Of a stretch of DNA of 64,000 bases, positions 18,939 through 33,669 are shown piece by piece. The notes under the pieces were generated by a model. It was not told the DNA's origin. It worked only from the letters and a program-made list of their open reading frames with translations, and made no database searches. The DNA is taken from assembly GCF_016907695.1 (NCBI RefSeq), contig NZ_JAFBCK010000001.1, positions 2,659,001-2,723,000 of the forward strand, read 5' to 3'. How positions within the stretch are numbered: the stretch's first letter is position 1; the number at the start of each line of letters is the position of its first letter. Origin of the DNA: Actinokineospora baliensis. GTDB lineage: Bacteria; Actinomycetota; Actinomycetes; Mycobacteriales; Pseudonocardiaceae. Made by a program: the position numbers and the translations under genes.

Positions 18939-19961
18939 ATGACCCAGTTGATGAGCGCGCCCGACCCGGTCGCCGCCGGTCGACCGGACGTGCCGCGCAG
19001 GCGGGTGTCCCCGCCGGGCGGGATGGACCGGGTCTTCCGGGCGGTGCTGCGCGGCGCGGGGCTCACCGTGCTGGCGCTGATGGTGACCGTCGGCGTCTTC
19101 CTGCTCATCCGCGGGCTCAGCGCCTTCTCCGTCGCCGGGTTCGGCTTCTTCACCACCGAGACCTGGCAGCCGGACTCCAAGAACTTCGGCATCGCCGCGG
19201 TGCTGGTGGGCACGCTGCTGATCGCCTCGGTCGCCCTGGTGGTCGCCTTCCCGCTGGCGCTGGGCATGTCGCTCTACATCTCCGAGTACGCGCCGCGGCG
19301 GCTCAAGCGGGCGCTCACCAGCATGATCGACCTGATGGCCGCGGTGCCCAGCGTGGTCTACGGCCTGTTCGGGTCGACCCTGCTGCAGTGGGAGGGCACC
19401 GACATCCCGCGCTGGTTGTCCATCCAGTTCGGCTGGATCCCGTTCCTGTCGGTGCCCGAGGCCGATCCGGACAACCCGCTCTCGCCCAACGGGGTCTACA
19501 TGACCTCGACCTTCTGGGCCGGTCTCGTCGTCGGGTTCATGATCATGCCGTTCATCTGCTCGGTGATGCGCGAGTCGTTCACCCAGGCGCCGCAGGGCGA
19601 GCGCGAGGGCGCCTACGCGCTGGGATCCACCCGCTGGGGCATGATCCGCAGCGTCGTGCTGCCCTTCGGCCGCTCCGGCATGATCGGCGGCACCATGCTC
19701 GGCCTCGGCCGGGCGCTCGGCGAGACGATCGCCGTCGCGATGATCATCTCGCCGGTCTTCGTCATCCAGCCGCACATCCTCGGCTCCGGCGCCAACTCGG
19801 TGTCCGCGCTGATCGCCCAGCAGTGGGGCTCGGCGAGCCCCTTCGGCCTCGGCGCGCTGATGGCGGCGGGCCTGGCCCTGTTCACGCTCACCCTGGTGGT
19901 CAACTTCGCCGCCTCCGCGGTGATCGCCCGCAGTCGATCCGGCCAGGGGAGTGACGCCTGA
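18939..19961 (+). CDS. pstC: Phosphate ABC transporter permease PstC
   Basis: 340 aa from ATG 18939 (GGAG 9 bp before). The six membrane segments and the permease EAA loop EREGAYALGSTRWGMIRSVVLP are clear. PSVVYGLFGS and LGRALGETIAVAMII are diagnostic PstC motifs. It forms the heterodimeric channel with PstA and is powered by PstB. The first gene of a pst set whose order is C-A-S instead of the usual S-C-A-B; pstA starts within its stop codon (TGATG). Confidence 0.95.
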   Translation: MTQLMSAPDPVAAGRPDVPRRRVSPPGGMDRVFRAVLRGAGLTVLALMVTVGVFLLIRGLSAFSVAGFGFFTTETWQPDSKNFGIAAVLVGTLLIASVALVVAFPLALGMSLYISEYAPRRLKRALTSMIDLMAAVPSVVYGLFGSTLLQWEGTDIPRWLSIQFGWIPFLSVPEADPDNPLSPNGVYMTSTFWAGLVVGFMIMPFICSVMRESFTQAPQGEREGAYALGSTRWGMIRSVVLPFGRSGMIGGTMLGLGRALGETIAVAMIISPVFVIQPHILGSGANSVSALIAQQWGSASPFGLGALMAAGLALFTLTLVVNFAASAVIARSRSGQGSDA

Positions 19962-21226
19962 TGTCCACTGTGGAAGCCCAGCCCGTGCCCGCGTACCCGC
20001 AACCGACCCAGCGGGTGCCGCAGCCCGTCCCCGGTCGCCACCGCGCGCCCCTGGCGCCCGAGGTCCGCCGCGACACCCGCTCCATCCGCCGCGCCGACAT
20101 CGTCGCGCTGATCGGCGCGCTGGTGGCCGCGGTGGCGCTGACCGGGGTGCTCTTCGACCAGATCGCCCCGTTCTCCGGCGTGGTCGGCTTCGTCGCCATC
20201 GCCTACCCGCTGTTCCTGGGGATCTACGCGCTGCTGGTGTCGCTGGAGGAGAGCGCGCTGACGGTGCGCGACAAGCTGGTCTCCGCGCTGGTGCACAGCA
20301 TCGCCGTGCTGGCCGTCGCGGCGCTGATCGTGATCATCGCATACCCCGTGGTCAAGGGCTGGCCCGCGCTGACCCACCTCAACTTCTTCACCGAGGACAT
20401 GGCCGACGCGGGCACCCTGGACCCGCTGGAGTTCGGCGGGATCCTGCACGCCATCGTCGGCACGCTCGAGCAGATCAGCATCGCGCTGGTGGTCACCGTC
20501 CCGCTCGGACTGGCCACCGCGGTGTTCCTCAACGAGACCAGGGGCGTGTTCACCCGGCTGGTGCGCACCGTCGTCGAGGCGATGACCGCGCTGCCCTCGA
20601 TCGTGGCCGGTCTGTTCATCTACGCCTCGCTGATCCTGCTGCTGGGCTTCCAGCGCTCCGGGTTCGCCGCGGGCTGCGCGATCAGCATCATGATGCTGCC
20701 GATCATGATCCGCGCCGCCGACGTGGTGCTGCGGTTGGTGCCCAGTTCGCTGCGCGAGGCCTCGCTGGCCCTGGGCGCGGGCCAGTTGCGCACGGTGTGG
20801 CACGTGGTGCTGCCGACCGCGCGCTCCGGTCTGACCACCAGCGTCCTGCTGGCCACCGCGCGCGGTGTCGGCGAGACCTCGCCGGTGCTCATCGCCGCGG
20901 GCTTCACCCCGTACCTCAACGCCAACCCGTTCGTCGACGCGCAGGTCTCCCTGCCGCTGGCCACCTACCAGATGGTGGCCTCGTCCGAGGAGACCATGCA
21001 GACCCGCGCGTTCGGCGCCGCCTCGGTGCTGATCCTGCTGGTGCTCATCCTGTTCGTCCTCGCCCGGGTGCTCGGCGGGCGCGAGGCGGGCGCCCTGTCG
21101 GCCGGTCAGCAGCGCCGCAGGGCCAAGGCGTCGGTGCGCGACCGCGAGCGGTTCATCGCCGCGGCCAACCACCGCCCCGGTTCCGGTTCCCCCCTCCCCG
21201 ACCCGCAGCAAGGAGCTCAGTCATGA
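19961..21226 (+). CDS. pstA: Phosphate ABC transporter permease PstA
   Basis: 421 aa, ATG overlapping the pstC stop. The last 290 residues are a normal PstA with ALPSIVAGLFIYASLILLLG, the EAA loop LREASLALGAGQLRTVWHVVLP and ARGVGETSPVLIAAGF. The first 130 residues are an extension: a proline-rich cytoplasmic head and two extra hydrophobic segments (IVALIGALVAAVALTGVLF and FVAIAYPLFLGIYALLV). Such N-terminally longer PstA proteins occur in actinobacteria. The gene overlaps pstS by 4 bp. Confidence 0.94.
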   Translation: MSTVEAQPVPAYPQPTQRVPQPVPGRHRAPLAPEVRRDTRSIRRADIVALIGALVAAVALTGVLFDQIAPFSGVVGFVAIAYPLFLGIYALLVSLEESALTVRDKLVSALVHSIAVLAVAALIVIIAYPVVKGWPALTHLNFFTEDMADAGTLDPLEFGGILHAIVGTLEQISIALVVTVPLGLATAVFLNETRGVFTRLVRTVVEAMTALPSIVAGLFIYASLILLLGFQRSGFAAGCAISIMMLPIMIRAADVVLRLVPSSLREASLALGAGQLRTVWHVVLPTARSGLTTSVLLATARGVGETSPVLIAAGFTPYLNANPFVDAQVSLPLATYQMVASSEETMQTRAFGAASVLILLVLILFVLARVLGGREAGALSAGQQRRRAKASVRDRERFIAAANHRPGSGSPLPDPQQGAQS

Positions 21227-22803
21227 CCCCCCAGGGACGCGCGCGCGGGGTCGGCCTGCTGGCCGCCCTCGTCGTGCTCGCCGCCGCCGTGGTCGGGTTC
21301 GCCCCGACCGCCGCCGCCCAGGGCTACGTGCCGATCAGCGGATCGGGGTCGACCTGGAGCTTCAACGCGCTCGACCAGTGGCGCAAGAACGTCCAGCAGT
21401 TCGGCATCCGGGTCAACTTCTCCGGCACCGGCTCCACCGACGGCCGCAACCAGTTCAAGGCCGGTCAGGTGGACTTCGCGGTGTCGGAGATCCCCTACGG
21501 CCTGACCGACGCCGGGGTCCGCGACGTGCCGCCGCCGGACGGCAAGTTCGCCTACATGCCGATCGTCGCCGGTGGCACCTCGCTGATGTACAACCTCAAC
21601 ATCGCGGGCAAGCGGGTGACCAACCTGCGGCTCTCCGGCGACACGGTCACCAAGATCTTCACCCGCAAGATCACCATGTGGAACGACGCGGCGATCGCGG
21701 CCGACAACCCGGCGCTGACCCTGCCCGCCCGCCAGATCGTGCCGGTGGTGCGCAGCGACGGCTCCGGCTCGACCGCGCAGTTCACCAGCTACCTCGCCGA
21801 CCAGCACGGCGCGGACTGGGACGAGTTCTGCCACAAGGCGGGCCGCGTCCAGACCCCGTGCGGTTTCACCTCCGCCTTCCCCTCCTACCAGGGGATCGTC
21901 GGCCAGGTCGGCTCGATCGGCGTGGCCAACTACGTGCGGCAGGCGCAGAGCGACGGCGCCATCACCTACGTCGAGTACTCCTACGCCAAGAACGCCGGGT
22001 TCCCGGTCGCCAAGCTGCTCAACAAGAGCGGCTTCTACATCGGTCCGACCGCCCAGGCCGTCGCCGTCGGGTTGCTCAAGGCCGAGATCGACCCCAACGA
22101 CCTGACCCAGAAGCTGCAGGGCGTCTACAACTCGACCGACGACCGCACCTACCCGATGTCGAGCTACAGCTACATGATCCTGCCCACCGCCATCAAGGGC
22201 ACCTTCAACGAGCTCAAGGGCAAGACGCTCTCGGACTTCTCGTACTACTTCCTGTGCGAGGGCCAGCAGCAGGCCGAGCGGCTGGGGTTCTCGCCGCTGC
22301 CGATCAACCTGGTGCAGGCCGGGCTCAAGCAGGTGGAGCGGATCCCCGGCTCGACAAAGAAGCCGACCGACATCAGCAAGTGCAACAACCCGACCTTCTC
22401 CACCAACGGCACCAACACCCTCGCCCAGACCGCGCCGCACCCGCAGGAGTGCGACAAGAAGGGCTCGACGGTCCAGTGCGACGCCACCGGCAAGGCGACG
22501 TCGAAGAAGGGCACCACCACCAAGACCACCGGCGCCGCCAAGCCCGGTGAGACCGCCCCCGGCGCCGGGGAAACCCCGGGGACCGACCCGGGTGCGACCG
22601 GCACCGAGGGCGACGGGGCCGCGACGGGGGACACCGGCGAGGGGGAGAGCACCGAGGGCGGCCTGTCCGCCGTCCCGGTCTCGGTGGACCTGCCGCAGGA
22701 CGACGGCACGTTGCTCGTCGTGGTCGCCGCCGTGCTGATGGTCGTGCTCGTCGCGGGTCCGCCGCTGGTGGCCCGGCTGATGCGGGGCAAGGGGGGATCA
22801 TGA
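21223..22803 (+). CDS. pstS: Phosphate-binding protein PstS with C-terminal membrane anchor
   Basis: 526 aa, ATG with AGGAG 8 bp before it. A signal peptide (about 1-32, ending TAAAQG) has no lipobox Cys, unlike most PstS lipoproteins. The binding domain covers about 35-375, with ISGSGSTWSFNALDQW, RSDGSGSTAQFTSYL and KITMWNDAAIAADNP. A Thr/Gly/Glu-rich linker of about 110 residues leads to one membrane helix (about 498-518) and a short basic tail. The protein is therefore held in the membrane by its C-terminus, displayed on a flexible stalk. It would deliver phosphate to PstCA. The next gene overlaps by 4 bp. Confidence 0.9.
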   Translation: MTPQGRARGVGLLAALVVLAAAVVGFAPTAAAQGYVPISGSGSTWSFNALDQWRKNVQQFGIRVNFSGTGSTDGRNQFKAGQVDFAVSEIPYGLTDAGVRDVPPPDGKFAYMPIVAGGTSLMYNLNIAGKRVTNLRLSGDTVTKIFTRKITMWNDAAIAADNPALTLPARQIVPVVRSDGSGSTAQFTSYLADQHGADWDEFCHKAGRVQTPCGFTSAFPSYQGIVGQVGSIGVANYVRQAQSDGAITYVEYSYAKNAGFPVAKLLNKSGFYIGPTAQAVAVGLLKAEIDPNDLTQKLQGVYNSTDDRTYPMSSYSYMILPTAIKGTFNELKGKTLSDFSYYFLCEGQQQAERLGFSPLPINLVQAGLKQVERIPGSTKKPTDISKCNNPTFSTNGTNTLAQTAPHPQECDKKGSTVQCDATGKATSKKGTTTKTTGAAKPGETAPGAGETPGTDPGATGTEGDGAATGDTGEGESTEGGLSAVPVSVDLPQDDGTLLVVVAAVLMVVLVAGPPLVARLMRGKGGS

Positions 22804-25271
22804 TCAACGATCGGGTGCGGGGCCTGCTGCTGGTGGTCCTGCTGCTGGCCACCGGCGGGGTGCTGCTGGTACCGAGCGCGGCCACCGCGGCGGTGCCCGA
22901 GACCTCGGCGGTGACGGTGCGCGGCGCTGGCGAGTTCGCGAGCACGCAGTTCACCGTCGCCCAGACCAGGGGGCTGATCAACCAGACCGTCCACCTGAGC
23001 TGGTCGGGTGCCGCCCCGACCGACTCCGGCCGCGGCTACAACTACCTGCAGATCATGCAGTGCTGGGGCGACGACGCGACCGGACCGCGGCGCGAGCAGT
23101 GCCAGTACGGCACGCCGCTGCAGGGCTCCTACAACTCCGACGCGCTGTGGTCGCGCTCGCTGCCGGTGAAGCCAGCCAAGCTGCCCAACGGCGAGGACCC
23201 CGCGCCCGACGGCAGGCTCATCGACCCGCTCGAGACCACGCCGATACAGACCGAGAAGCCCGGCGCGGCGACCTACCTGCCGTTCGTCCCGGTGCCTGCC
23301 TCCGGCCCGCCAACCACCTCCAGCGAGCCGGGCTACGGCCTGTACTTCGACGCCAGCACCACCAACGAGGTGCAGGTCGGGGTCACCCGCGAGGACGGCA
23401 AGGGCGACCTCGACTTCGAGGTCCAGACCACCCTGGAGGCGCCGGGCCTGGACTGCGGCCGGGTCCGCACCAGCGGCGCCGACGCGGGCAAGGCGCGCAA
23501 CTGCTGGCTGGTCGTGGTGCCGCGCGGCACCAAGGAGGTCAACGGCAAGAGCGTCGTCGTGCCGACCGACCAGGGCGGGCACATCCACGGCTACCTCGAC
23601 TCGTCCCCGCTGAGCCAGAGCAACTGGGACAAGCGGCTGCCGCCGATCCGCCTCGACTTCGAGCCCGTCGGCGACGCCTGCCCGCTGGGCAAGGCCGAGC
23701 GCGCGCTCAGCGGCAACGAGTTCGTCGCCGACGCGGTGCAGCGCTGGCAGCCCGCGCTGTGCGCCAACAACGGCCCGGTGTTCGGGTTCGTCCAGGTGCC
23801 CGACCGCCAGGCCCGCGACCTGCTCGGCGGCGAGGACCCCGGCATGGTCTTCCTGGCCAAGCCCGCCGCCAAGGGATCGATGATCGACGACCGGGCGCTG
23901 GTGTACGCGCCGGTGTCGGTCTCGGCCTACACGGTGGCGTTCATCATGGAGCGCCAACCGAAGATCGACGCCCCGGACAGCATCAGGGTCAAGGACGGCC
24001 AGCCGATCGACGAGCTCAAGCTCACCCCCCGGCTGGTGGCCAAGCTGCTCACCCAGTCCTACTCGGCCGCGGTCCCCGGGCTGCCGGACTACCTCAAGGA
24101 CAACCCGACCCGGCTCAGCCAGGACGAGGAGTTCCTCCAGCTCAACCCCGAGTTCCGCGACCACGCCTCGCTGAGCATGCTCACCGTGGACGCGTTGGCG
24201 TCCTCCGTGGACATGGACGCGACCGAGTCGCTGTGGGAGTGGATCCTCGCCGACGCCGAGGCGAAGGCCTGGCTGGGCGGCACCCCCGACCAGTACGGGA
24301 TGAAGGTCAACAAGAACTTCATCGGGCTGCCGATGCCCGCGCAGAACTTCCCCAAGGCCGACCTGACCTGCATCCAGCAGAAGATCCTGAACATGATCGC
24401 CGAGCTGTGCGCGGGCACCAGGCGGCCGCTGGCCACCGACCTGCACGAGGCGGGCCGCGCGGTCAACCGCGGCGACAGCCTCGGCCGCGAGCCCAACGGC
24501 CAGCGCGACCCGCTCGACCAGAACAAGCCCGCCTTCTCCAGGGTCGGCCGCTCGGTGGTCGGCAAGCGCGCGATGCTGGCCGTGGTCGACACCGCGACCG
24601 CCAAGCGCTACGGCCTCACCACGGCCAAGCTGCGCAACGCGGCCGGGCAGTTCGTCGCCCCCACCGACGAGACGGTCCTCGCGGGCGTCGCCGAGATGAC
24701 CGCGACCGACACCCCCGGGGTGAAGGTCACCAACCCCAAGGCGACCGCCGCCAACGCCTACCCGCTGCCCGCGCTCACCTACGCGGCCACCGCGCCGTCG
24801 ATGCTGACCAAGGACTCGGGCAAGGACTACGCGAGTTTCCTGCGCTACGTCAGCACCCTGGGCCAGGCCAGCGGCGAGGGCGTCGGCAAGCTCCCGGCCG
24901 GGTACGTCCCGCTGCCGCAGTCGATGCGCGAGCAGACCGAGGCCAACGCGAAGGTGATCGAGCGCGACGCGGGCATCAAGCCCCCCGTCGTTGCCGAGCC
25001 GGTCGAGCCGCAGGACAGCGCCACCGAGGACGAGACCCCGGCGGAGGTCCCCGCGCCCGAGCCCGCTCCGCAGCCCGCCCCCGCGCCCGCCCCGGCCACC
25101 ACCCCGGCTCCGGTGCAGAGCACCCCGGTCGCCCAGAGCAAGACGACCCAGGCCACCCCGGTCGCATGGGTGTTGCGCTACCTGCTGGCCGGACTGCTCG
25201 TCGCCGGTGGTCTCGCCACCGCCGCGGGCCCCGTGCTGACCCGGCTCGGCACGCGGGCGAGGATTCGATGA
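22800..25271 (+). CDS. Large exported, membrane-anchored protein of the pst locus (binding-protein-like)
   Basis: 823 aa, ATG overlapping the pstS stop. A signal peptide (about 1-31), a long extracellular part with several Cys, an Ala/Pro-rich linker (about 735-785) and one C-terminal membrane helix (about 792-812) with a basic tail. The central region contains KLTPRLVAKLLTQSYS, reminiscent of the phosphate-binding-protein fold, where PstS has a similar VTKIFTRKI step. Homologues seem to accompany this type of Pst locus in actinomycetes; the function is unknown. Coupled translation with pstS suggests equimolar production and a structural or phosphate-handling role on the outer face of the membrane. 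Confidence 0.75.
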   Translation: MINDRVRGLLLVVLLLATGGVLLVPSAATAAVPETSAVTVRGAGEFASTQFTVAQTRGLINQTVHLSWSGAAPTDSGRGYNYLQIMQCWGDDATGPRREQCQYGTPLQGSYNSDALWSRSLPVKPAKLPNGEDPAPDGRLIDPLETTPIQTEKPGAATYLPFVPVPASGPPTTSSEPGYGLYFDASTTNEVQVGVTREDGKGDLDFEVQTTLEAPGLDCGRVRTSGADAGKARNCWLVVVPRGTKEVNGKSVVVPTDQGGHIHGYLDSSPLSQSNWDKRLPPIRLDFEPVGDACPLGKAERALSGNEFVADAVQRWQPALCANNGPVFGFVQVPDRQARDLLGGEDPGMVFLAKPAAKGSMIDDRALVYAPVSVSAYTVAFIMERQPKIDAPDSIRVKDGQPIDELKLTPRLVAKLLTQSYSAAVPGLPDYLKDNPTRLSQDEEFLQLNPEFRDHASLSMLTVDALASSVDMDATESLWEWILADAEAKAWLGGTPDQYGMKVNKNFIGLPMPAQNFPKADLTCIQQKILNMIAELCAGTRRPLATDLHEAGRAVNRGDSLGREPNGQRDPLDQNKPAFSRVGRSVVGKRAMLAVVDTATAKRYGLTTAKLRNAAGQFVAPTDETVLAGVAEMTATDTPGVKVTNPKATAANAYPLPALTYAATAPSMLTKDSGKDYASFLRYVSTLGQASGEGVGKLPAGYVPLPQSMREQTEANAKVIERDAGIKPPVVAEPVEPQDSATEDETPAEVPAPEPAPQPAPAPAPATTPAPVQSTPVAQSKTTQATPVAWVLRYLLAGLLVAGGLATAAGPVLTRLGTRARIR

Positions 25272-25289
25272 CCCCTGCCCGCACGCACG

Positions 25290-25320
25290 GCGCCGCAGGT
25301 ATGCCCCACCGGGGCGGCGC
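25290..25320 (+). terminator. Possible terminator after the large exported protein gene
   Basis: A two-part stem: GCGCCG (25290) with CGGCGC (25315), enclosing GCCCC/GGGGC around a 3-nt loop. Interrupted by an unpaired stretch, so only a moderate candidate. Confidence 0.35.
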
Positions 25321-25363
25321 TGCCGAAGGCCCCGTTGTCCGCGCGGTGTGTAGTCCGACCGTC

Positions 25364-25420
25364 ACTGTCCAGACAGGACAGTCTGTTGCGAACGCCCTGT
25401 TCGCCGTCCGGTCATGTACC
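25364..25420 (+). promoter_or_regulatory. Inverted repeat plus PHO-box-like repeats upstream of second PstS-like gene
   Basis: A perfect 7-bp inverted repeat ACTGTCC-AGACA-GGACAGT (25364-25382) is followed by two abutting 11-mers, GTTCGCCGTCC (25399) and GGTCATGTACC (25410), that resemble PHO-box units. The rest of the 408-bp gap to 25679 holds no gene; a long leader (about 260 nt) would separate this site from the start codon. Confidence 0.4.
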
Positions 25421-25679
25421 GGTGCCGGGACCGACAACTTCGCCGCGATACACCCGGTGAGCGGTACTTCCGGCGGCGGGTCCGAGCCGCTGGGACGCCC
25501 GCGCGACGGGTCGGACGAGGGGGTGATGCGCCCGACCGGCCTGTGAGGGGGAGTCGCCACTCCCCGCCACAGACCGGACGGACAGATGCGTGGCCCGGTG
25601 GTCACGGCGTGGACCAGCCCACCGGGGGCGTGCTCGGACAACCAGTCCGCGCACCACTGCGAAGAAAAGGATACAGGTA

Positions 25680-26657
25680 GTGAGCAAGAAGCAGCGTTTG
25701 ATCGTTGTGGCCTCCGCCGCGCTCGCCCTGGCGGGCGTGTTCGCCGGTACCGCCCAGGCGGACCCGACCGGTGCGCCGACCTACCGCGAGCTGGCCGGTA
25801 CCGGCTCCGACACCACCCAGACGGTGATGAACGGCCTCGCCGACGCCATCACCATCAACGGCACCAAGGTGCTCGGTTCGTACGACGCCCGCGGCACCGC
25901 CCAGATCACGACGAAGGACGGCATCCCCGCCTGCACCTTCAACCGCCCGGAGAACTCCGGCGGTGGCGTGGCCGCCCTGAAGAACAGCATGACCACCGGT
26001 GACGGTTGCGTCCAGTTCGCGCGCTCCTCCTCGAACTCGGCGGCCGCCAACGCGGACATGAAGTTCATCCCGTTCGCGATCGACGCGCTGACCTACGCGG
26101 TCCGCAGCGACAGCGCGGTGCCCAAGAAGCTGACCAAGGCCCAGCTGACCGCGATCTACACCTGCACCAACACCGCGTTCAAGCCGCTGGCCCCGCAGTT
26201 CGGTTCCGGCACCCGCGCGTTCTTCATCCGCTCGGTCATGCCGACCGGCACCGTCGACTCGACGAACCTGTTCGGCACCAACGGCCAGTACTCCTGCGTC
26301 AACGACAAGGACGCGGCCAACGAGCCGATCCAGGAGCACGTCGGCACCTACCTGACCGACACCCGCCACCTGCTGCCCTACTCGATCGCGGTCTACAACT
26401 CGCAGGTCTACGGCAACGCCCCGGCCGCCCAGGGCAAGGCTGTTCTCGGCACCGTCGACAACATCCAGCCGACCAACCTGAACACCTCCTCGGTGTTCAA
26501 GCGCGACGTCTACAACGTGATCCCGGCCAACAAGCTCGAGGTCGCCCCGTACAACACCGTGTTCGTCGGCGCCAACTCGGCGATCTGCACCCGCGGCGAC
26601 GTCATCACCCGCTACGGCTTCGGTGTCGCGCCCAACTGCGGCGTCCCGGTCCAGTAG
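25680..26657 (+). CDS. Secreted PstS-like substrate-binding protein
   Basis: 325 aa from GTG 25680 with AAAAGG upstream. Signal peptide about 1-27 (AGVFAGTAQADP), no lipobox, no membrane tail, so it may be released into or beyond the wall. The start of the mature part, YRELAGTGSDTTQTVMNGL, replaces the PstS phosphate loop, and KLTKAQLTAIYTC with FGSGTRAFFIRSV gives the second lobe. Cys pairs (IPACTF/GDGCVQF, YTCTNT, YSCVND, ICTRG/PNCGVP) suggest disulfides. It starts a second transcription block of surface proteins. The ligand is probably phosphate or a phospho-compound, by location and fold. Confidence 0.82.
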   Translation: MSKKQRLIVVASAALALAGVFAGTAQADPTGAPTYRELAGTGSDTTQTVMNGLADAITINGTKVLGSYDARGTAQITTKDGIPACTFNRPENSGGGVAALKNSMTTGDGCVQFARSSSNSAAANADMKFIPFAIDALTYAVRSDSAVPKKLTKAQLTAIYTCTNTAFKPLAPQFGSGTRAFFIRSVMPTGTVDSTNLFGTNGQYSCVNDKDAANEPIQEHVGTYLTDTRHLLPYSIAVYNSQVYGNAPAAQGKAVLGTVDNIQPTNLNTSSVFKRDVYNVIPANKLEVAPYNTVFVGANSAICTRGDVITRYGFGVAPNCGVPVQ

Positions 26658-26706
26658 TCCTCCCCCTCTTCTTCGCGCTACCTGATCACGGAAGGTTTGC
26701 ACAACA

Positions 26707-28281
26707 GTGCGTACGAACGTCTTCACCCGCAGGCTGGTCGGCGGGGCCATCGCCTTCGCGGCAGCGACCGCTGCCACCCTCGGCGCGGCGGGCATCGCCG
26801 CCGCGGCGGCGCCCCCCGGAAACCTGGGCACCCTGAGCATCAACAAGACCTCCGGTCTTGACACCGACGCCCCCACCTTCACCACGTCCGCGGGCTGCAC
26901 CCCGGACTCCGACGGCTACAGCCTGTTCGTCTACGGGCCGGGTGCGTGGGACGCGGGCTTCACCGCGACCCCCGTCACCGACGTCGGCTTCTCGCAGAGC
27001 GGCGGCTTCCCGATCGTCCAGGGCCTGTCCTTCAAGGACATCGCGGTGGACAACGCCACCACGATCGTCCCGGGCAAGTACACCGTCGCCGCCTACTGCG
27101 TCGACCAGTTCGCCGCCGAGAACAAGGGCGCGTTCACCCGCGACATCTGGTTCACCTCCGCCACCGCGTGGCGCGACAGCGACCCGGCCGTGCAGAACCC
27201 CAGCACCACCGCGCTCTCGGTCACCCCGGCCGCCCCGGTCGTCTCGGGCACCAACGTGACCCTGACCGCCAACGTCACCCCGGCCACCGCCGCGGGCACC
27301 GTCCAGTTCAAGGACGGCGCAGGCGACCTCGGTGCCCCGGTGACCGTGGTCGGCGGTGTCGCGACCCTCTCCACCACCGCGCTGCCCACCGGTGCGCGTT
27401 CGCTGACCGCCTCCTTCTCGGGCGCGGGCTACGTCACCTCCACCTCGTCGGCCGTGACCTACCAGGTCAACGCCCCCGCGGCCGTCTCCACCACGACCGC
27501 CCTCGCGGTCACCCCGAGCGGTACCGCCGCCGCGTACTCGCCCGTCACCCTCTCCGCCACCGTGAACCCGGGTGCGGCCGCCGGTGCGGTGCAGTTCTTC
27601 GACGGTGCCAACGCCCTGGGCAACCCGGTCGCCGTGTCCGCCGGTGCGGCCTCGCTGACCACCTCCACCCTCGCGGTGGGCGCGCACAACTTCACCGCGC
27701 GCTTCGTCCCCACCAACGCCGCCGCCTACGAGCCCTCGGTCTCGCTGGGCGTCGCCCTCGAGGTCACCCCGTTCGCCGGTGTGACCGCGTCGCAGAACAT
27801 CACCACCACCGTGCTCGCCGGTGAGCTGCTCATCAGCGTCGCCAACCAGAACGTGGTCCTGCCCTCCCCGGTCATGGCCGCCGACGGTTCGCTGCTGACC
27901 ACCGCTGGCTCGCTCAACCCGATCAAGGTCACCGACACCCGCGCGGGCAACCCGGGCTGGAACGTCTCCGGCCAGGTGTCCGACTTCGTCAACGGCGCCA
28001 ACTCCATCAACGGCGCGAACCTGGGCTGGACCCCGAAGCTCGTCGACAAGTCCGCCCCCCAGGTGATCGCCGTCGGTGCGCAGGTCAACCCGGCCAACGC
28101 CATCGCCCCGGGTGCCACCGCGCCCAACGGCCTCGGCCTGGCCGCCGCCCGCGTTCTCGCCACCGCCGCCGCCCTCGGCGGCAACGGCACCGCGAACCTG
28201 TCGGCCGACCTCGCCCTCAACGTCCCCACCTCCACCGTGGCGGGCACCTACTCGGCGCTGCTGACCCTCACCGCCATCTGA
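26707..28281 (+). CDS. Secreted Ig-like / WxL-like cell-surface protein
   Basis: 524 aa, GTG start with GGAAGG upstream. Order: signal peptide (about 1-36); a domain of about 115 residues (LGTLSINKTSGLDTDAPTF ... AFTRDIWF) shared with two neighbours; two bacterial Ig-like repeats (about 160-255 and 260-352); and a C-terminal WxL-like domain (about 360-524) with NPIKVTDTRAGNPGWNVSG, NLGWTPKLV and an end like VAGTYSALLTLTAI. WxL domains bind peptidoglycan non-covalently in Firmicutes; this actinobacterial version has GWNV and GWTP instead of strict WxL. The next gene encodes a WxL-interacting-type protein, which supports the reading. Confidence 0.72.
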   Translation: MRTNVFTRRLVGGAIAFAAATAATLGAAGIAAAAAPPGNLGTLSINKTSGLDTDAPTFTTSAGCTPDSDGYSLFVYGPGAWDAGFTATPVTDVGFSQSGGFPIVQGLSFKDIAVDNATTIVPGKYTVAAYCVDQFAAENKGAFTRDIWFTSATAWRDSDPAVQNPSTTALSVTPAAPVVSGTNVTLTANVTPATAAGTVQFKDGAGDLGAPVTVVGGVATLSTTALPTGARSLTASFSGAGYVTSTSSAVTYQVNAPAAVSTTTALAVTPSGTAAAYSPVTLSATVNPGAAAGAVQFFDGANALGNPVAVSAGAASLTTSTLAVGAHNFTARFVPTNAAAYEPSVSLGVALEVTPFAGVTASQNITTTVLAGELLISVANQNVVLPSPVMAADGSLLTTAGSLNPIKVTDTRAGNPGWNVSGQVSDFVNGANSINGANLGWTPKLVDKSAPQVIAVGAQVNPANAIAPGATAPNGLGLAAARVLATAAALGGNGTANLSADLALNVPTSTVAGTYSALLTLTAI

Positions 28282-28320
28282 GGTAAGCCCGAGACCGGCT
28301 GATCGACCTCGATCGAGCCA

Positions 28321-28357
28321 GTGGGGCGGACCGGGCCAGGTACCCGGTCCGCCCCAC
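28321..28357 (+). terminator. Strong hairpin between the WxL-like and DUF916-like genes
   Basis: A perfect 15-bp stem (GTGGGGCGGACCGGG with its complement) and 7-nt loop, 40 bp after the stop. No T-run. It may terminate most transcription so that the Ig/WxL-like protein is made in excess over the downstream genes. Confidence 0.7.
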
Positions 28358-28386
28358 ACCCCTTGACCCTCTACTAAGGACTGACC

Positions 28387-29412
28387 ATGAAGCGGATCTG
28401 GCGCCGTGCGGTGCTCTCCGGTCTGCTGGCGCTGCTGGGCACCGGGCTGACCGGACTGGTCCCGGCGCACGCCACCACCGCCGCCGCGGCAGCACCCGCC
28501 ACCTTCGGCGTGCGCCCGGCGACCGCCCAGGCGCCGGACAACCGCCCGAACTTCAGCTACAGCGCGACACCCGGCGCGGTCGTGGTCGACCACGTCGCGG
28601 TGTCGAACGTGTCCAACGACCCGCTCTCGCTCAAGCTCTACCCCAACGACGCGTTCAACACCCCCGACGGCGGATTCGACCTGCTGGCTTCCAATGCCAA
28701 GTCGGTCGACGTCGGCGCCTGGGTCACCGTGGACTCCGGCCAGGTCGAGGTCCCCGGTCGCACCACCAAGATCGTGCCGTTCCGGCTGAGCATCCCGCAG
28801 AACGCCACCCCCGGCGACCACGTCGGCGGCATCGTGGCCGCGCTGGTCACGGAGGCCACCAACGCCGAGGGGCAGCGGGTCGCCGTCGAGCAGCGCGTGG
28901 GCGCCCGGGTGTACCTGCGCGTCTCCGGTGACCTCATGCCCAAGCTGAGCATCGAGGACCTCTCCGCCGACTACGAGCACTCGCTGTTCGGCCGCGGCGA
29001 CACCGTCGTCGAGTACACCGTGCGCAACTCCGGCAACGTCCGCCTCGGCGGCAAGCAGACGGTCACCGTCGAGACCCCCTGGGGCTCCGGGACCGCCGCG
29101 CAGAACCTGGCGGACCTGCCGGAACTGCTGCCCGGCAACACCTTCCGCGTGCGCACCGTCGTGTCCGGCGTGCTGCCCGCGGGCTGGCTCGACGCGCTGG
29201 TGCACATCGATCCGGTCGCGCCGCCAGGCCCGCAGCCCCAGGCGCAGGCGGTCGACGCGAGCGTCACCGCCGTCGCCGTTCCGTGGCTGCTGCTCATCCT
29301 CGTGCTCCTGGTCGTCGCACTGGTGCTGTTCCTGTTGTGGCGCAGGCGCCAACGCCGCGCGCGGCCCGTGGTCGAGCCGGAACCGCTGCCGGAGGTGGAA
29401 CATGCGGTCTAG
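28387..29412 (+). CDS. WxL-interacting (DUF916-like) membrane-anchored protein
   Basis: 341 aa, ATG. Signal peptide about 1-36; FGVRPATAQAPDNRPNFSYSATPGAVVVDHVAVSN is the start of the DUF916 / WxL-protein peptidoglycan-binding domain (core FSYSATPGAVVVDHVAV); VPFRLSIPQNATPGDHVGGIVAAL is its hallmark; a second beta domain follows (about 180-285). One membrane helix (about 298-318) and a basic tail end the protein. In Firmicutes such proteins pair with WxL proteins on the wall. It overlaps the next gene by 11 bp, so the two are co-translated. Confidence 0.82.
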   Translation: MKRIWRRAVLSGLLALLGTGLTGLVPAHATTAAAAAPATFGVRPATAQAPDNRPNFSYSATPGAVVVDHVAVSNVSNDPLSLKLYPNDAFNTPDGGFDLLASNAKSVDVGAWVTVDSGQVEVPGRTTKIVPFRLSIPQNATPGDHVGGIVAALVTEATNAEGQRVAVEQRVGARVYLRVSGDLMPKLSIEDLSADYEHSLFGRGDTVVEYTVRNSGNVRLGGKQTVTVETPWGSGTAAQNLADLPELLPGNTFRVRTVVSGVLPAGWLDALVHIDPVAPPGPQPQAQAVDASVTAVAVPWLLLILVLLVVALVLFLLWRRRQRRARPVVEPEPLPEVEHAV

Positions 29413-30136
29413 TCGCGTCCTGTTCGCCGCGCTCGTCGCGGTGGTACTCGGGTTGTTCCTGCCGGGCACGGCGTCGGCGGAGCGCATCGGCGGGCTGCTG
29501 GTCACCCCCGGCGAGAGCGTCGACCAGGTCCCCGTGCGGCTCAAGACCGAGAAGGGCTGCCCGCAGGGCGCCACCGGCTACATCGCGACCATGAAGGGCC
29601 ACGGCCTGGACAACGTCGTCGTGGTGCCGACCTCGGACGTGCTGATGTCGCACGACAAGGAGTTCATGGTCCCGGTCGCCAACACCTTCAGCGACTACGC
29701 CAAGGACAACAACACCACGCTGCAGGGCCGCTACGAGATCACGCTCAGCTGCGTCGACGCGTTCTCCCAGCAGAACTTCGGCGACTTCACCGCCTCGATC
29801 GACATCCCGGCCGCCGGGCGCTACGCGGCCGTCGGCGCGGCCAAGGGCCCGGCGCGCAACACCGACCCGATCGTCCCGCCGGAGCTCGGGCTGGGTGCCG
29901 AGGAGCCCGGCGCCGCACCCGCGCCGCAGGCCGGTGACCCGGGGCAGCAGCCCTCCGACGTCGCGCAGCCGGGGGCCGCCCCTGCCGACGTCGCCGAGCC
30001 CGACCGCTCCGGGTCGAGCTCCAACACCTTCCTCTACCTGGGTGGTGGCGTGGCGGTGCTGGTCGTGGCAGCGGCCATCGGCGCCCGAATCCGCAGGCGG
30101 GGACCCGCGACCACCACCGAGTCCGAAACCGAGTGA
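29402..30136 (+). CDS. Membrane-anchored surface protein with the locus-specific domain
   Basis: 244 aa, ATG overlapping the DUF916-like gene by 11 bp. Signal peptide about 1-26, extracellular part about 27-145, a Pro/Ala/Gly-rich linker, a membrane helix (about 213-232) and a basic tail. The extracellular part (LLVTPGESVDQVPVRLKTEKGC ... TTLQGRYEITLSCVDAF; cores quoted) aligns with the domain seen at the N-terminus of the WxL-like protein and twice in the next protein: Cys at the start, a Y..T/T.KG strand, then YxxxLxCVDxF. No known family comes to mind. Confidence 0.72.
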   Translation: MRSSRVLFAALVAVVLGLFLPGTASAERIGGLLVTPGESVDQVPVRLKTEKGCPQGATGYIATMKGHGLDNVVVVPTSDVLMSHDKEFMVPVANTFSDYAKDNNTTLQGRYEITLSCVDAFSQQNFGDFTASIDIPAAGRYAAVGAAKGPARNTDPIVPPELGLGAEEPGAAPAPQAGDPGQQPSDVAQPGAAPADVAEPDRSGSSSNTFLYLGGGVAVLVVAAAIGARIRRRGPATTTESETE

Positions 30137-30179
30137 CGCCGAACCCGGCCGCAGCTCACGAACTGGAGGCAGTGAACTC

Positions 30180-31745
30180 ATGCGTAAGCGCCAACTGATC
30201 GCGGCAGGCGCGGCGGTCCTCACCACGGCCGCGGTGGGCATCGTGCTCGCCGCGGGCACCAGCCAGGCCGAACCGCCCGCGGCGACCTTAGGGACGCTGA
30301 CCGTCAGCAAGCAGCTCGGTCTGGACACCGACGCGCCGACCTGGACGACCGAGGGCCCGTGCACCCCGGACTCCGACGGCTACACGCTGTGGATCTACGG
30401 GCCGGGCGGGTTCGCCAAGGGCCTGGTCGGTTCCCCGATCTCGGACGTCGGCTTCTCCACCACCGACCCGATCAGCGTCACCCAGGGCCTGACCTTCAAG
30501 GACATCGCGCTGGAGAACAGCACCACGATCCAGGCGGGCGAGTTCACTGCGGTCGTGTTCTGCCGCGACGGCTTCGGCGGCGTCGACACCGGCACGTTCA
30601 CCAAGAAGTTCTACTTCGTCGACCCGACGCACTGGCAGGTGCGCAACCCGGCGGACCCCACCACCACGTCGTCGACCACCACCACCACCACGACCATCCC
30701 GCCGACCACCACGTCGACCACCACCGTGGTGCCGACGACCACGACCACGACGGTCGAGCCGACCACGACGACCACCACGGTCGAGCCGACCACGACGACG
30801 ACCACGGTCGAGCCCACGACGACGACCACGACCGTCGAGCCGACCACCACCACGACCACGGTCGAGCCCACCACCACCACCACCACCACGACCACGACCG
30901 TCGAGCCGACGACCACCACGACGACCGTCGCGCCCACGACGACGACCACCACGGTGCAGCCGACGACGACCACCACCACCACGGTCAAGCCGACGACGAC
31001 CACCACCACGACCACGACGGTCAAGCCGACGACCACCACGACCACGGGTGGGGCGACCACCACGACCCCGTCCGGCCCGGTCCGGCTCGGCGCGCTGACC
31101 CCCAGCAAGACCAGCGGAGCCGCCAACGAGACCCCGCCGACCTACTTCACCGACGGCCCGTGCCCGAAGTCGACCAAGGAATACCTGATCAACGTCAAGG
31201 GCCCGGGTGACTGGCTCAAGGGCTTCCCCGGCGCGGTCGCCACCGAGACCGACATGTCCATGAGCGACCCCTTCACCGGCACCCAGACCTGGGGCTTCGC
31301 CGACATCGCCAAGGACAACAACGTCACCATCGCGCCGGGCACCTACACCGTCGAACTGCGCTGCGTCGACGCCTTCGGCCAGCTCGACCTCGGCTGGTAC
31401 GACGTCAAGCTGGAGTTCTTCGCCGCGGCGGACGGGGTGCGCTGGAAGCTCGCGCCGGGCACCGGCACGACGACCACCAACCCGTCGTCCACCACGACCA
31501 CCCTGCCCGGCGGTGGCACCACCACCACGACCGCGCCCGGTGGCGGCACCACCACGACCACCGACCCCGCCCCGCAGGGCAGCTCCGGCACCAGCGGCAC
31601 CGGTGGCCTCGCCAGCACCGGTGCGTCCGTGGGCCTCAGCCTGCTTGCCGGTACCGCGCTGATCGGGTTCGGCGCCCTCGCGCTCGTCGCCGCCCGTCGT
31701 CGTCGCGCCGCCGGTGCGCCCAGCGAGTGGCCGACCGAGAGCTGA
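30180..31745 (+). CDS. LAXTG cell-wall protein with threonine-rich stalk
   Basis: 521 aa from ATG 30180. Signal peptide about 1-30; a first locus-specific domain (about 35-155, with CTPDSDGYTLWIYGPGGF and AVVFCRDGFGG); a threonine stalk of nonapeptides TTTTTTVEP and longer variants (about 160-297); a second such domain (about 302-420, with YTVELRCVDAFGQ); a second Thr/Gly linker; and a sorting signal LASTG at about 477, followed by a hydrophobic segment and RRRR. LAXTG is the motif of class E sortases. The protein is expected to be fixed to peptidoglycan and to reach outward. The sortase-like gene follows, 70 bp away. Confidence 0.82.
   Translation: MRKRQLIAAGAAVLTTAAVGIVLAAGTSQAEPPAATLGTLTVSKQLGLDTDAPTWTTEGPCTPDSDGYTLWIYGPGGFAKGLVGSPISDVGFSTTDPISVTQGLTFKDIALENSTTIQAGEFTAVVFCRDGFGGVDTGTFTKKFYFVDPTHWQVRNPADPTTTSSTTTTTTTIPPTTTSTTTVVPTTTTTTVEPTTTTTTVEPTTTTTTVEPTTTTTTVEPTTTTTTVEPTTTTTTTTTTVEPTTTTTTVAPTTTTTTVQPTTTTTTTVKPTTTTTTTTTVKPTTTTTTGGATTTTPSGPVRLGALTPSKTSGAANETPPTYFTDGPCPKSTKEYLINVKGPGDWLKGFPGAVATETDMSMSDPFTGTQTWGFADIAKDNNVTIAPGTYTVELRCVDAFGQLDLGWYDVKLEFFAAADGVRWKLAPGTGTTTTNPSSTTTTLPGGGTTTTTAPGGGTTTTTDPAPQGSSGTSGTGGLASTGASVGLSLLAGTALIGFGALALVAARRRRAAGAPSEWPTES
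30658..31068 (+). repeat. Tandem coding repeat (about 27-bp unit, TTTTTTVEP)
   Basis: ACG/ACC codon runs broken by GTCGAGCCG or related triplets, in about 11 units. Unit lengths vary (six, seven, nine or ten Thr), as expected from slippage or unequal crossing-over. The spacer changes from VEP to VAP, VQP and VKP toward the 3' end. Confidence 0.85.
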
Positions 31746-31815
31746 TGACCGCCGACCGGTGCGCGCCGCGGGGTGACCCGCGGCGCGCACCGGCCGCCCG
31801 AGAGAGGACACCAGG

Positions 31816-32757
31816 GTGACCATGCTCGACACACCCCCGCCTGCCCCGCCGCCACCGGGCCTGCCGCCATCGGGCCTGCCGGAGCTGGGCCTGCTGGAAG
31901 GGAAGTACCGGCCGGAACGGCCCGCACTGCTGCTGGCCGGGCAGATGGTGGCCATCCTCGGCGCGGTGCTGCTGTGCTTCGTCGCCCAGCTCGTCTTCCT
32001 CGGCGCGCTCAAGCACGAGCGCGACCAGAACTCCGCCTACAACGCCCTGCGCACCGACCTGGCCAAGGCGACCGCGCCGGTGTCCGGGCTGACCGAGGAC
32101 GGCAGGCTGCTCGACAGCGGCACCCCGGTCGCGATCATCGAGATCCCGCGGCTGCGGCTGCAGGAGGTCGTCCTCGAGGGCACCTCCGCGCGCACCCTGA
32201 AGTCCGGGCCGGGGCACGTGCGCAACACGCCGCTGCCCGGCCAGTCCGGCACGAGCCTGATCTACGGCCGCAAGGCGGCATACGGCGGACCGTTCGCCCA
32301 GATCGACAAGCTGCGCCAGGGCGACGAGATCGTGGTCACCACCGGCCAGGGCGAGCACCGCTACATGGTGCAGGGCGTGCGCCGCGTCAACGACAAGGAG
32401 CGGGTCGCCCCCGCTGGCGAGGGGCGGCTGACCCTGGCCACCGCGGACGGGTCCTACTTCCTGCCGACCGACGTCATCCGGGTCGACGCCAAGCTGGTGT
32501 CGGAGGTGCAGGCCAAGACCAGGCAGCTGCCCGCGTTCGCGGTGCCCGACAACGAGCGCGCCATGGTCGGCGACCGCTCCGCGCTGGTACCGGTCGCGCT
32601 GTGGACGCTGATCCTCGCCGCCGCGGGGGTCGGCGCGGTGTACGTGCGCCAGCGGGTCGGCCGGTGGCAGGCCTGGGTGATCGGGGTGCCGGTGGTCGGC
32701 GCCGTCGCGCTCACCCTCGCCGACCACACCGCCGCCCTGCTGCCCAACCTGATGTGA
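31816..32757 (+). CDS. Class E sortase-like protein lacking catalytic His and Cys
   Basis: 313 aa, GTG 31816 (ATG 31822 is possible). Proline-rich head, membrane helix about 37-63, sortase fold about 103-232, then two more membrane helices (about 258-276 and 285-303). The fold is recognisable from [39 protein letters not shown] and [20 protein letters not shown]. In active class E enzymes the first block reads GHR..YG and the second TLTTC; here Arg152 replaces His and Ala210 replaces Cys, while Arg222 may be kept. The protein should not be a transpeptidase. It may bind or position LAXTG substrates or serve as a scaffold. It overlaps no gene; pstB follows 17 bp on. Confidence 0.85.
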
Positions 32758-32774
32758 CCGGAGAGGACCCCCGA

Positions 32775-33593
32775 ATGACCAGCGTGATGACCAGCCCCCT
32801 GCCCGTGCCCGGCGCCGAGCGGGCCAGCATCGACGCGCGCGAGGTGTCCGCCTGGTTCGGCGACCGCAAGGTCCTCGACCGGGTGTCGCTGCTGATGCCC
32901 GGCGGGTCGGTGACCGCGCTGATCGGCCCCTCCGGCTGCGGCAAGTCGACGTTCCTGCGCACCCTCAACCGGATGCACGAGCTGATCCCCGGCGCCTCGC
33001 TGGCGGGCGAGGTCCTGCTCTCCGGGGTCGACATCTACGACCCGGGCCGCAAGCTCACCGACGCCCGCAAGCAGATCGGGATGGTGTTCCAGAAGCCCAA
33101 CCCGTTCCCGGCGATGTCCATCTACGACAACGTGATCGCGGGCCTGAAGCTGACCGGGCTCAAGGTCGCCCGCTCCGAGCGCGACGACCTGGTCGAGCAG
33201 TGCCTGACCAAGGCGGGCCTGTGGGTCGAGGTCCGCGACCGGCTCCGCCAGCCGGGTGGCGCGCTCTCCGGCGGGCAGCAGCAGCGGCTGTGCATCGCCC
33301 GCTCGCTCGCGGTGCGGCCCAAGGTGCTGCTCATGGACGAGCCGTGCTCGGCGCTGGACCCGACCTCGACCAGGCGCATCGAGCAGACGATCGCCGAGCT
33401 CGGCCACGAGGTGACGATCATCATCGTGACGCACAACATGCAGCAGGCGGCCCGGGTTTCGCAGCAGTGCGCGTTCTTCCTCGCCGAGCAGGGCACCCCG
33501 GGTGTGATCGTCGAGGCAGGGCCGACGCAGCAGATCTTCACCTCGCCCAACGACCAGCGCACCTCCGACTACGTCAACGGCCGGTTCGGCTGA
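32775..33593 (+). CDS. pstB: Phosphate ABC transporter ATP-binding protein PstB
   Basis: 272 aa from ATG 32775. Walker [21 protein letters not shown], with the NRM hallmark of PstB; Q-loop [19 protein letters not shown]; signature [16 protein letters not shown]; Walker [15 protein letters not shown]-loop [13 protein letters not shown]. All are intact. It energises PstCA. The distance from pstA (over 11 kb, with the surface genes between) is unusual. It is placed right behind the sortase-like gene, so both are likely transcribed together. Confidence 0.95.
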
Positions 33594-33669
33594 TCAACCC
33601 GATCGTGGGGTCGTCGCGGGCCGGTCGGCGCGGGTAGCGTGGGTGTCCGGCACGGTTCGCGGTGGGGGT

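What the first reader, a model, noticed from the sequence alone, without database searches (positions are those of the whole stretch)
18939..33593. Pst phosphate transporter interleaved with a WxL/DUF916/LAXTG cell-wall protein set
pstC-pstA-pstS is followed by a large exported protein, a second PstS-like protein, an Ig/WxL-like protein, a WxL-interacting-type protein, a membrane-anchored protein, a threonine-stalk LAXTG protein and a sortase-fold protein, and only then pstB. Overlapping starts (pstC/pstA/pstS/next; DUF916-like/next) and short gaps tie these into few transcripts. Known pst operons do not contain a peptidoglycan-spanning assembly. WxL and DUF916 proteins are established as a wall complex in Firmicutes. 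Inference: a structure that crosses the thick wall to catch phosphate or a phospho-polymer and pass it to PstS/PstCA.
Basis: partly seen in the sequence, partly recalled or inferred. Interest (0 to 1): 0.85.

Follow-up and report, generated by a model that had tools for sequence, protein, structure and literature searches.

The report
Phosphate importer with cell-wall arm
This soil bacterium carries, beside its ordinary phosphate pump, a second pump whose genes are locked together with wall-type surface proteins, an altered phosphate-binding protein and a dead sortase; the same set recurs across many actinobacteria and looks like an undescribed way of gathering phosphate through a thick cell wall.

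Summary
In 58 of 58 complete loci (57 fetched relatives plus the window, several actinobacterial families) the order PstC-PstA-PstS1-BIG-PstS2-(surface genes)-sortase-like-PstB is kept (BIG, PstC and PstB were selection criteria). WxL and WxLIP (DUF916) genes are present together in 38 of 58 and absent together in 20.

The large exported protein (BIG) is a PstS fold without the phosphate-binding loops. The sortase-fold protein has Arg for the catalytic His, and Ala, Gly, Thr or Ser for the Cys, in 63 of 63 covered locus rows and in the 120 best of 713 database rows: a conserved pseudo-sortase. PstS1 keeps its ligand residues. The genome has a separate canonical pstSCAB, and a PHO-box-like element precedes pstC as it does the canonical pstS.

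Best reading: a second, probably PhoP-controlled Pst-type importer with membrane- and wall-held capture proteins, the pseudo-sortase and degenerate PstS being structural subunits. A phosphate relay through the wall is inferred only. WxLIP genes also occur away from pst, beside heme and zinc importers among others. Our searches of the held library found no paper on this operon.

The parts
18428..18781 (+). 117-aa protein without Pfam match; relatives lie upstream of pstC in most loci (possible accessory member)
   Evidence: no family at E <= 0.1; 47 of 68 pstC genes have a relative within 1.5 kb upstream, same strand
18845..18866 (+). PHO-box-like pair of 11-nt direct repeats (GTTCGTTCGTT GTTCACACCGG), 94 bases before pstC
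   Evidence: the canonical pstS of the same genome has GTTCACCCGTT GTTCAC at -120; box definition from passages of PMC9019756 and PMC4415409
18939..19961 (+). PstC permease
   Evidence: TIGR02138 252.5 bits, cut-off 196.45
19961..21226 (+). PstA permease
   Evidence: TIGR00974 219 bits, cut-off 193.45
21223..22803 (+). PstS1: phosphate-binding protein without lipobox, with a C-terminal transmembrane segment behind a low-complexity linker
   Evidence: TIGR00975 212.2 bits, cut-off 205; ligand residues kept; C-terminal TM in 66 of 66 and lipobox-like pattern in 0 of 66 family members (crude patterns)
22800..25271 (+). BIG: 823 aa; N-terminal part (about 38-296) barely tested, degenerate PstS domain (about 298-725), Pro-rich stalk, C-terminal TM
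25399..25415 (+). weak second PHO-box-like match in the 408-base gap before PstS2 (3 mismatches of 13 scored positions)
   Evidence: tentative
25680..26657 (+). PstS2: exported PBP_like_2 protein without visible anchor, keeping ARSSS and GSGTR loops
   Evidence: PF12849 32.9 bits, cut-off 27; conserved columns
26707..28281 (+). X domain + two Big_3_5 Ig domains + WxL-like domain
   Evidence: PF16640 93.6 bits; WxL 21.2 bits, below cut-off 25; AlphaFold2 pLDDT 86.6, pTM 0.42, almost all-beta chain
28387..29412 (+). WxLIP (DUF916 / PF06030) protein with C-terminal TM
   Evidence: 37.1 bits, cut-off 27.3
29402..30136 (+). X domain with C-terminal TM anchor
30180..31745 (+). two X domains joined by a Thr-rich stalk, C-terminal LASTG sorting signal + TM + RRRR
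   Evidence: sequence; NF058583 26.8 bits, below cut-off 65
31822..32757 (+). pseudo-sortase: membrane sortase fold with Arg for the catalytic His and Ala for the catalytic Cys (alternative GTG start at 31816)
   Evidence: PF04203 70.5 bits, columns corrected
32775..33593 (+). PstB ATPase
   Evidence: TIGR00972 339.7 bits, cut-off 343.2; PF00005 112.5 bits

Best explanation
A second, probably PhoP-controlled phosphate importer of the Pst type whose binding side has been extended into the cell wall. Shown by sequence: PstC, PstA, PstB and a TM-tethered PstS1 with kept ligand residues form the importer; a second binding-type protein (PstS2) is exported without a visible anchor; a degenerate PstS (BIG) and a dead sortase (Srt) are conserved partners with membrane segments; and in 38 of 58 loci a WxL-like/WxLIP pair is added, with X-domain and LAXTG proteins. 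Inferred: PstS2 captures phosphate in or beyond the wall, the WxL/WxLIP and LASTG proteins hold the outer parts to peptidoglycan, PstS1 receives the ion at the membrane and gives it to PstCA, and BIG and the pseudo-sortase are structural subunits that keep the binding proteins at the permease.
For: Same order in 58 of 58 complete loci, with PstA, PstS1, PstS2 and Srt in all 58. Distances of the partners correlate (BIG-PstS2 r 0.87, BIG-Srt 0.73; the ten pairs range from 0.61 to 0.87; shared ancestry not corrected). PstS1 keeps the PstS ligand residues: Arg135-equivalent in 65 of 66, Ser139-equivalent 65 of 66, a carboxylate at the Asp56 position in 66 of 66 (Glu 59, Asp 7) (PstS1 genes of 450-700 aa). 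PHO-box-like element: 3 or fewer mismatches to the 17-mer of the genome's canonical pstS in 12 of 68 pstC upstream regions against 1 of 1144 other genes of the loci. The pseudo-sortase is present also in the 20 loci without WxL, so it belongs to the core. Domain fusions: PstS2 with Ig domains, WxLIP with X. Parallels: WxL/WxLIP pairs beside heme and zinc importers; in Corynebacterium diphtheriae, loss of the membrane protein ZnuE of a zinc ABC locus with wall proteins lowers growth in low zinc (PMC12445094, abstract and discussion).
Against: No expression, binding or uptake data. 8 of the 12 good PHO-box matches are from Actinokineospora (window included), and 56 of 68 pstC genes have more than 3 mismatches. 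WxL/WxLIP are absent in 20 of 58 loci. Asp56 is Glu in most PstS1, so specificity may differ. The 408-base gap before PstS2 may separate two transcripts. Wall attachment of the WxL-like protein rests on a sub-threshold match whose motifs read WxV and WxP. In the zinc parallel, removal of the wall proteins ZnuF and ZnuG did not lower growth in low zinc and even restored it in a znuABC mutant (PMC12445094 abstract). Phosphate is a small ion that may not need a relay. 6 of 16 genomes of the genus lack BIG, so the system is accessory.
Confidence: 0.55

Rival explanations
1. The surface proteins store or sequester phosphate (or bind phosphate-rich polymers or minerals) at the wall, and are merely co-regulated with the importer rather than part of a relay.
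For: The authors of PMC12445094 discuss ZnuF and ZnuG as possible sequestering or storage proteins, and their removal did not lower growth in low zinc. WxL modules are dispensable here (20 of 58 lack them).
Against: PstS2 and BIG, not only the WxL set, are invariant between the permease and ATPase genes.
Confidence: 0.22
2. The operon imports another phosphorus compound (pyrophosphate, phosphite, sugar or teichoic phosphate) or a better-discriminated phosphate, rather than plain phosphate like the canonical system.
For: Glu replaces Asp at the Asp56-equivalent in 59 of 66 PstS1; a canonical-type PstB is already present in 16 of 16 genomes of the genus; BIG has about 260 extra N-terminal residues.
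Against: The Arg and GSG/T ligand loop are kept, and PstC, PstA and PstS1 pass phosphate-specific equivalog cut-offs.
Confidence: 0.2
3. The locus is chiefly a surface structure (adhesion or wall architecture) whose Pst part is a phosphate sensor rather than a nutrient pump.
For: Most of the coding length is exported protein; Pst systems also signal through PhoU/PhoR (established knowledge).
Against: A PhoU-like gene was found in only 2 of 81 loci (L024, L026; two-component genes were not searched for), and PstB and both permeases look intact.
Confidence: 0.1
4. The sortase-like protein is a regulator, lid or decoy for true sortases that anchor the LASTG protein, not a transporter subunit.
For: It keeps the sortase fold, and the genome has four other sortases with His and Cys.
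Against: It is present in 13 of 58 loci with no X-domain protein at all, and in the Cellulomonas and several Streptomyces loci flags no LxxTG protein between PstS2 and Srt.
Confidence: 0.15

Closest known systems
Canonical PstSCAB phosphate importer
   Same: PstC, PstA, PstB and a ligand-competent PstS; PHO-box-like element upstream
   Different: Order C-A-S-(insert)-B; PstS1 with a C-terminal TM instead of a lipobox; two more PstS-type proteins, a pseudo-sortase and wall-type proteins; PstB just under the equivalog cut-off; a canonical copy exists elsewhere in the same genome
Csc / WxL-DUF916-LPXTG clusters of Firmicutes (PMC1534035, PMC9772566; passages read)
   Same: DUF916 protein with C-terminal TM, a large WxL-like protein and an LPXTG-type protein side by side
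   Different: No separate small WxL protein, no DUF3324 match at E <= 1, WxL motifs read WxV/WxP, and the set sits inside an ABC importer operon; PMC9772566 states that over 91% of 938 WxL sequences are in Firmicutes, and its text held none of the searched words actinobact, ABC transporter, phosph
Anchored repeat-type zinc ABC importers (TIGR03769-TIGR03773) and the C. diphtheriae znuAECB-znuFG locus (PMC12445094)
   Same: ABC importer encoded with membrane- and wall-held substrate-binding surface proteins in actinobacteria
   Different: Different binding domains and substrate; no pseudo-sortase was mentioned in the parts read; none of the ten window proteins scanned matched these models
HmuTUV/HtaA heme uptake (PMC12494546, abstract read)
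   Same: Surface binding domains feeding an importer; in this genome a WxL/WxLIP pair stands beside such a locus (L099)
   Different: Heme-specific CR/HtaA domains; no PstS paralogues
Class E sortases
   Same: Fold and membrane setting (NF033747 84.1 bits, under its cut-off of 160)
   Different: Catalytic His and Cys replaced throughout the family

Membership tests
Pst phosphate ABC importer (PstSCAB) | PstC and PstA permeases over equivalog cut-offs | tested here: met
   252.5 vs 196.45 and 219 vs 193.45 bits
Pst phosphate ABC importer (PstSCAB) | PstS over equivalog cut-off with phosphate ligand residues | tested here: met
   212.2 vs 205 bits; residues kept in the family, with Glu for Asp56
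Pst phosphate ABC importer (PstSCAB) | PstB over equivalog cut-off TIGR00972 | tested here: not met
   339.7 vs 343.2 bits; the canonical copy of the genome has 376.3. Hence filed as a variant, not as canonical PstSCAB
Pst phosphate ABC importer (PstSCAB) | transports phosphate | not testable with these tools
   needs uptake and binding assays
Csc / WxL cluster | DUF916 (PF06030) protein | tested here: met
   37.1 vs 27.3 bits
Csc / WxL cluster | WxL domain at Pfam cut-off with two W-x-L motifs | tested here: not met
   21.2 vs 25 bits; W418 invariant and W441 in 90% or more of 43 rows, but motifs read WxV and WxP
Csc / WxL cluster | separate small WxL protein | tested here: not met
   among the ten proteins scanned only 26707-28281 matched WxL
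Csc / WxL cluster | LPXTG-type protein | tested here: met
   LASTG + hydrophobic stretch + RRRR at the end of 30180-31745
Sortase enzyme | sortase fold | tested here: met
   PF04203 70.5 vs 26.6 bits
Sortase enzyme | catalytic His and Cys | tested here: not met
   His column Arg in 63 of 63, Cys column A 57, G 5, T 1 of 63 covered rows; His column Arg 120 of 120, Cys column A 81, T 34, S 3, G 2 of 120 database rows (window's own included); no Cys within 6 residues in any of these rows
Sortase enzyme | catalytic Arg | tested here: inconclusive
   the C-terminal strand could not be aligned reliably with true sortases
Anchored repeat-type ABC importer | TIGR03769/03770/03772/03773 matches | tested here: not met
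   none among the ten window proteins at E <= 1
PhoP regulon | two 11-nt direct repeats near GTTCACC upstream | tested here: met
   degenerate first repeat (GTTCGTT)
PhoP regulon | PhoP binding and induction by low phosphate | not testable with these tools
   needs gel shift and RNA-seq

The most novel reading that the evidence does not exclude
An importer class found across many actinobacterial families and, as far as our searches reach, undescribed, in which two dead proteins, a sortase stripped of His and Cys and a PstS stripped of its ligand loops, have become fixed structural subunits of an ABC importer, forming a membrane-to-wall column that carries phosphate from wall-bound receptors to PstCA; the WxL/WxLIP pair is a portable wall adaptor that actinobacteria plug onto phosphate, heme and zinc importers and onto surface phosphatases.
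Probability: 0.4. Interest if true: 0.9.

Novelty: new variant of a known kind. Interest (0 to 1): 0.77.

Why it matters
How thick-walled bacteria bring scarce nutrients through the wall is best known for metals and heme. A conserved phosphate system with dedicated wall parts would extend this to a nutrient that often limits soil and freshwater life and that governs antibiotic production in actinobacteria. It would also be a sortase fold kept as a non-enzyme subunit; a search for pseudo- or inactive sortases listed 2 papers on lactococcal pili, not opened, and no such family. It also corrects database labels: relatives of the pseudo-sortase that carry a name in the listing are called sortase, class D or E sortase, peptidase C60 or LPXTG-site transpeptidase although they lack both the His and the Cys.

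Tried and rejected
Chance neighbours: rejected, 58 of 58 complete loci keep the order. Recent insertion of surface genes into pst: rejected for the core; on the BIG tree the WxL set needs only 3 changes over 58 loci (quick tree, LG+G4). A working dedicated sortase: rejected. BIG as an enzyme: no sign; its best structural matches are PstS, but the N-terminal 260 residues were barely tested. WxL match as proof of wall binding: not accepted, sub-threshold. Structure search of the Ig/WxL-like chain was filled by Ig and Fn3-like arrays; the X and WxL-like domains were not resolved by it, which says nothing about their folds. A GTTCACC pair scan was too loose (23 of 69 against 31 of 332 at 11 or more of 14) and was replaced. 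In one search the strictest bin went the other way (1 or fewer mismatches: 0 of 69 against 4 of 412). My gene caller merged or missed genes in some loci (L025, L059, L064 have no BIG call); counts were therefore taken from six-frame domain hits, where 23 of 81 loci were dropped as incomplete. hhalign of PstS1 against PstS2 was weak (31%). An error of mine: the column that I called His was the Gly before it; one search recounts it (Arg throughout), and the Arg column is withdrawn as unreliable. Papers: searches listed nothing on this operon; the review PMC7866108 has no occurrence of 'sortase' or 'second pst' (term search only). Only a library of open papers was searched. Confidence was lowered slightly on this check, because the zinc parallel is weaker than first written and WxLIP is mostly away from pst in the order-wide draw.
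Full report
What is there. Eleven genes on the + strand from 18939 to 33593 read PstC, PstA, PstS1, an 823-aa exported protein (BIG), PstS2, an X-Ig-Ig-WxL-like protein, a WxLIP (DUF916) protein, an X-domain membrane protein, a Thr-stalk protein ending in LASTG, a sortase-fold protein and PstB. The first four overlap by 1 to 4 bases, the WxLIP gene overlaps the next by 11, and the other gaps are 17 to 105 bases except for 408 bases before PstS2. The window lies in a 7.68-Mb genome; the nearest named relatives of BIG are Actinokineospora, so the genus is very probably Actinokineospora.

A second system. The same genome has an ordinary pstS-pstC-pstA-pstB run at about 1.043-1.047 Mb, with a lipobox-type PstS and the best PstB match of the genome (376.3 bits, over the cut-off), and a PhoU gene some kb away. 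A PstB over the cut-off occurs in 16 of 16 genomes of the genus; BIG in 10 of 16. The operon in the window is therefore an accessory second Pst-type system.

Conservation. A scan of species genomes with the BIG profile found 219 coding places, of which the best 80 were fetched. With six-frame domain models, 58 of 81 loci (80 plus the window) hold PstC, BIG and PstB on one strand in range; BIG was the query and PstC and PstB were selection criteria, so these three are present by construction. In 58 of 58, PstA, PstS1, PstS2 and the sortase-like protein are also present, in one order. WxL and WxLIP occur in exactly the same 38 of 58; X domains in 45 and Ig domains in 54. The 20 loci without WxL are from Cellulomonas, Microbacteriaceae, Streptomyces and a relative, Nanopelagicales and Motilibacter; in many of them PstS2 carries two or three Ig domains at its C-terminus, and in Streptomycetaceae loci with WxL the WxLIP protein is often fused to an X domain. 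On the BIG tree the WxL label needs 3 changes, against 16.6 on average in shuffles. In one further genome of the order the same parts stand in another order (L117; PstC and PstA lie outside the stretch fetched).

The binding proteins. PstS1 keeps the ligand positions in the family: Arg in 65 of 66, the GSG/T loop in nearly all, a carboxylate in 66 of 66, but Glu instead of Asp in 59. A C-terminal membrane segment was found in 66 of 66 and a lipobox-like pattern in 0 of 66 (crude patterns). PstS2 is a weaker family member (PF12849 32.9 bits) with conserved ARSS and GSGTR loops and no visible anchor.

The pseudo-sortase. The sortase fold is clear (the best solved relatives listed are sortases and sortase-like proteins). 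Aligned with the genome's own four other sortases (L118, L119, L120, L122), which have the His, the protein has Arg in its place; the Arg is found in 63 of 63 covered rows of the loci and in 120 of 120 database rows (the best 120 of 713, the window's own included). The Cys column reads Ala 57, Gly 5, Thr 1 of 63 and Ala 81, Thr 34, Ser 3, Gly 2 of 120, with no Cys within six residues in any of these rows (one of 64 locus rows is truncated). All four other sortases have a TC motif. In 4 rows (3 of the loci, 1 of the database) a His lies within four residues of the mutated position, just after it. Because the protein is in 58 of 58 loci, including those without WxL or LxxTG partners, it belongs with the transporter. 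What became of the catalytic Arg could not be settled.

Control. The canonical pstS of the genome has GTTCACCCGTTGTTCAC at -120; pstC of the window has GTTCGTTCGTTGTTCAC at -94. Three or fewer mismatches to that 17-mer occur in the 250 bases before 12 of 68 pstC genes and before 1 of 1144 other genes of the loci. 8 of the 12 are Actinokineospora (window included); the others are two Amycolatopsis, one Paractinoplanes and one Propionibacteriales genome. Taking the first gene of the run and scoring 13 positions, 15 of 69 against 11 of 412 controls have 2 or fewer mismatches (Fisher 1.2e-7, rows not independent), while 1 or fewer gives 0 of 69 against 4 of 412. The box as two 11-nt repeats with GTTCACC, and a similar motif in Actinosynnema, were read in passages of PMC4415409 and PMC9019756. 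This is support, not proof, for phosphate control.

The wall module elsewhere. The second WxL/WxLIP pair of the genome stands beside a heme-type importer with an HtaA protein that ends in an LAATG-type signal (L099). In a draw of 61 genomes of the order, PF06030 had 12 matches in 7 genomes (10 over the cut-off), and 2 of the 12 lie in a pst operon. I looked at 18 WxLIP loci outside the 80 (own second copy, 8 in the genus, 9 from that draw). 7 lie beside heme-type importers (L099, L101, L102, L105, L106, L107, L110), 2 beside anchored-repeat zinc importers confirmed by NCBIfam (L103, L113) and 1 in the rearranged phosphate operon (L117). In 2 the neighbour that matches my locus-built WxL model is an alkaline or a purple acid phosphatase (L104, L112); Pfam's own WxL model did not match these two. 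The rest: an M14 peptidase with a WxL-like domain (L116), a GH43 neighbour (L114), one with the layout of L103 but not confirmed (L108), and three unclear (L109, where my models missed the gene, L111, L115). So WxL/WxLIP is a portable surface module, in this sample often tied to nutrient uptake and not special to phosphate.

Mechanism. Shown: composition, order, loss of catalytic and ligand residues, kept ligand residues of PstS1. Reported for relatives: in C. diphtheriae a zinc ABC locus has wall proteins with a zinc-associated motif, and its membrane protein ZnuE is needed for full growth in low zinc, but removal of the wall proteins alone did not lower growth (PMC12445094); surface domains of graded affinity take up heme (PMC12494546, abstract). 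Inferred: PstS2 and the wall proteins gather phosphate, PstS1 receives it, BIG and the pseudo-sortase hold the assembly to PstCA. The strongest single doubt is whether so small an ion needs a relay; storage or display functions remain open.

Verdict. The finding is real and conserved, the Pst-type core is secure, the wall-relay idea is plausible and untested, and the dead sortase and the degenerate PstS are the most surprising parts.

Noticed in passing
L099:7277-14826 (own genome, 3.697-3.705 Mb) and L101, L102, L105, L106, L107, L110: WxL-like and WxLIP genes lie beside heme-type ABC importers with HtaA proteins; in L110 HtaA and a (sub-threshold) WxL domain are one protein.
   Followed up: partly
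L104:7174-9012 and L112:9720-11630: An alkaline phosphatase (PF00245) and a purple acid phosphatase-like protein match the locus-built WxL-like model (not Pfam's WxL) and sit next to WxLIP genes: possible wall-held phosphatases.
   Followed up: partly
window 18428-18781: A 117-aa protein without Pfam match has relatives upstream of 47 of 68 pstC genes; its function is unknown.
   Followed up: partly
window 25272-25679: The 408-base gap between BIG and PstS2 holds a weak PHO-box-like match, also seen at similar distance in L012, L014 and L015: possible second promoter.
   Followed up: partly
G002:C17:97816-104353 and G011:C62:5053-11444: Two genomes of the genus carry a second, distant BIG copy (32-35% identity) with a PstB-type gene a few kb away.
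   Followed up: no
L117:4751-18001: In another family of the order the same parts stand in a different order (PstS1, BIG, Srt, PstS2, WxL, WxLIP, then a PstB-type ATPase).
   Followed up: partly
L024:2644-3333 and L026:3702-4379: A PhoU-like gene lies upstream in these 2 of 81 loci only (L024 confirmed by Pfam).
   Followed up: partly
L036: A record titled Bifidobacterium breve MAG holds part of the operon (BIG to an X-domain gene); possibly a misbinned contig.
   Followed up: no
window 33643-34002 and 34005-34829: A STAS-domain protein and an ankyrin-repeat protein follow pstB; whether they belong was not examined.
   Followed up: no
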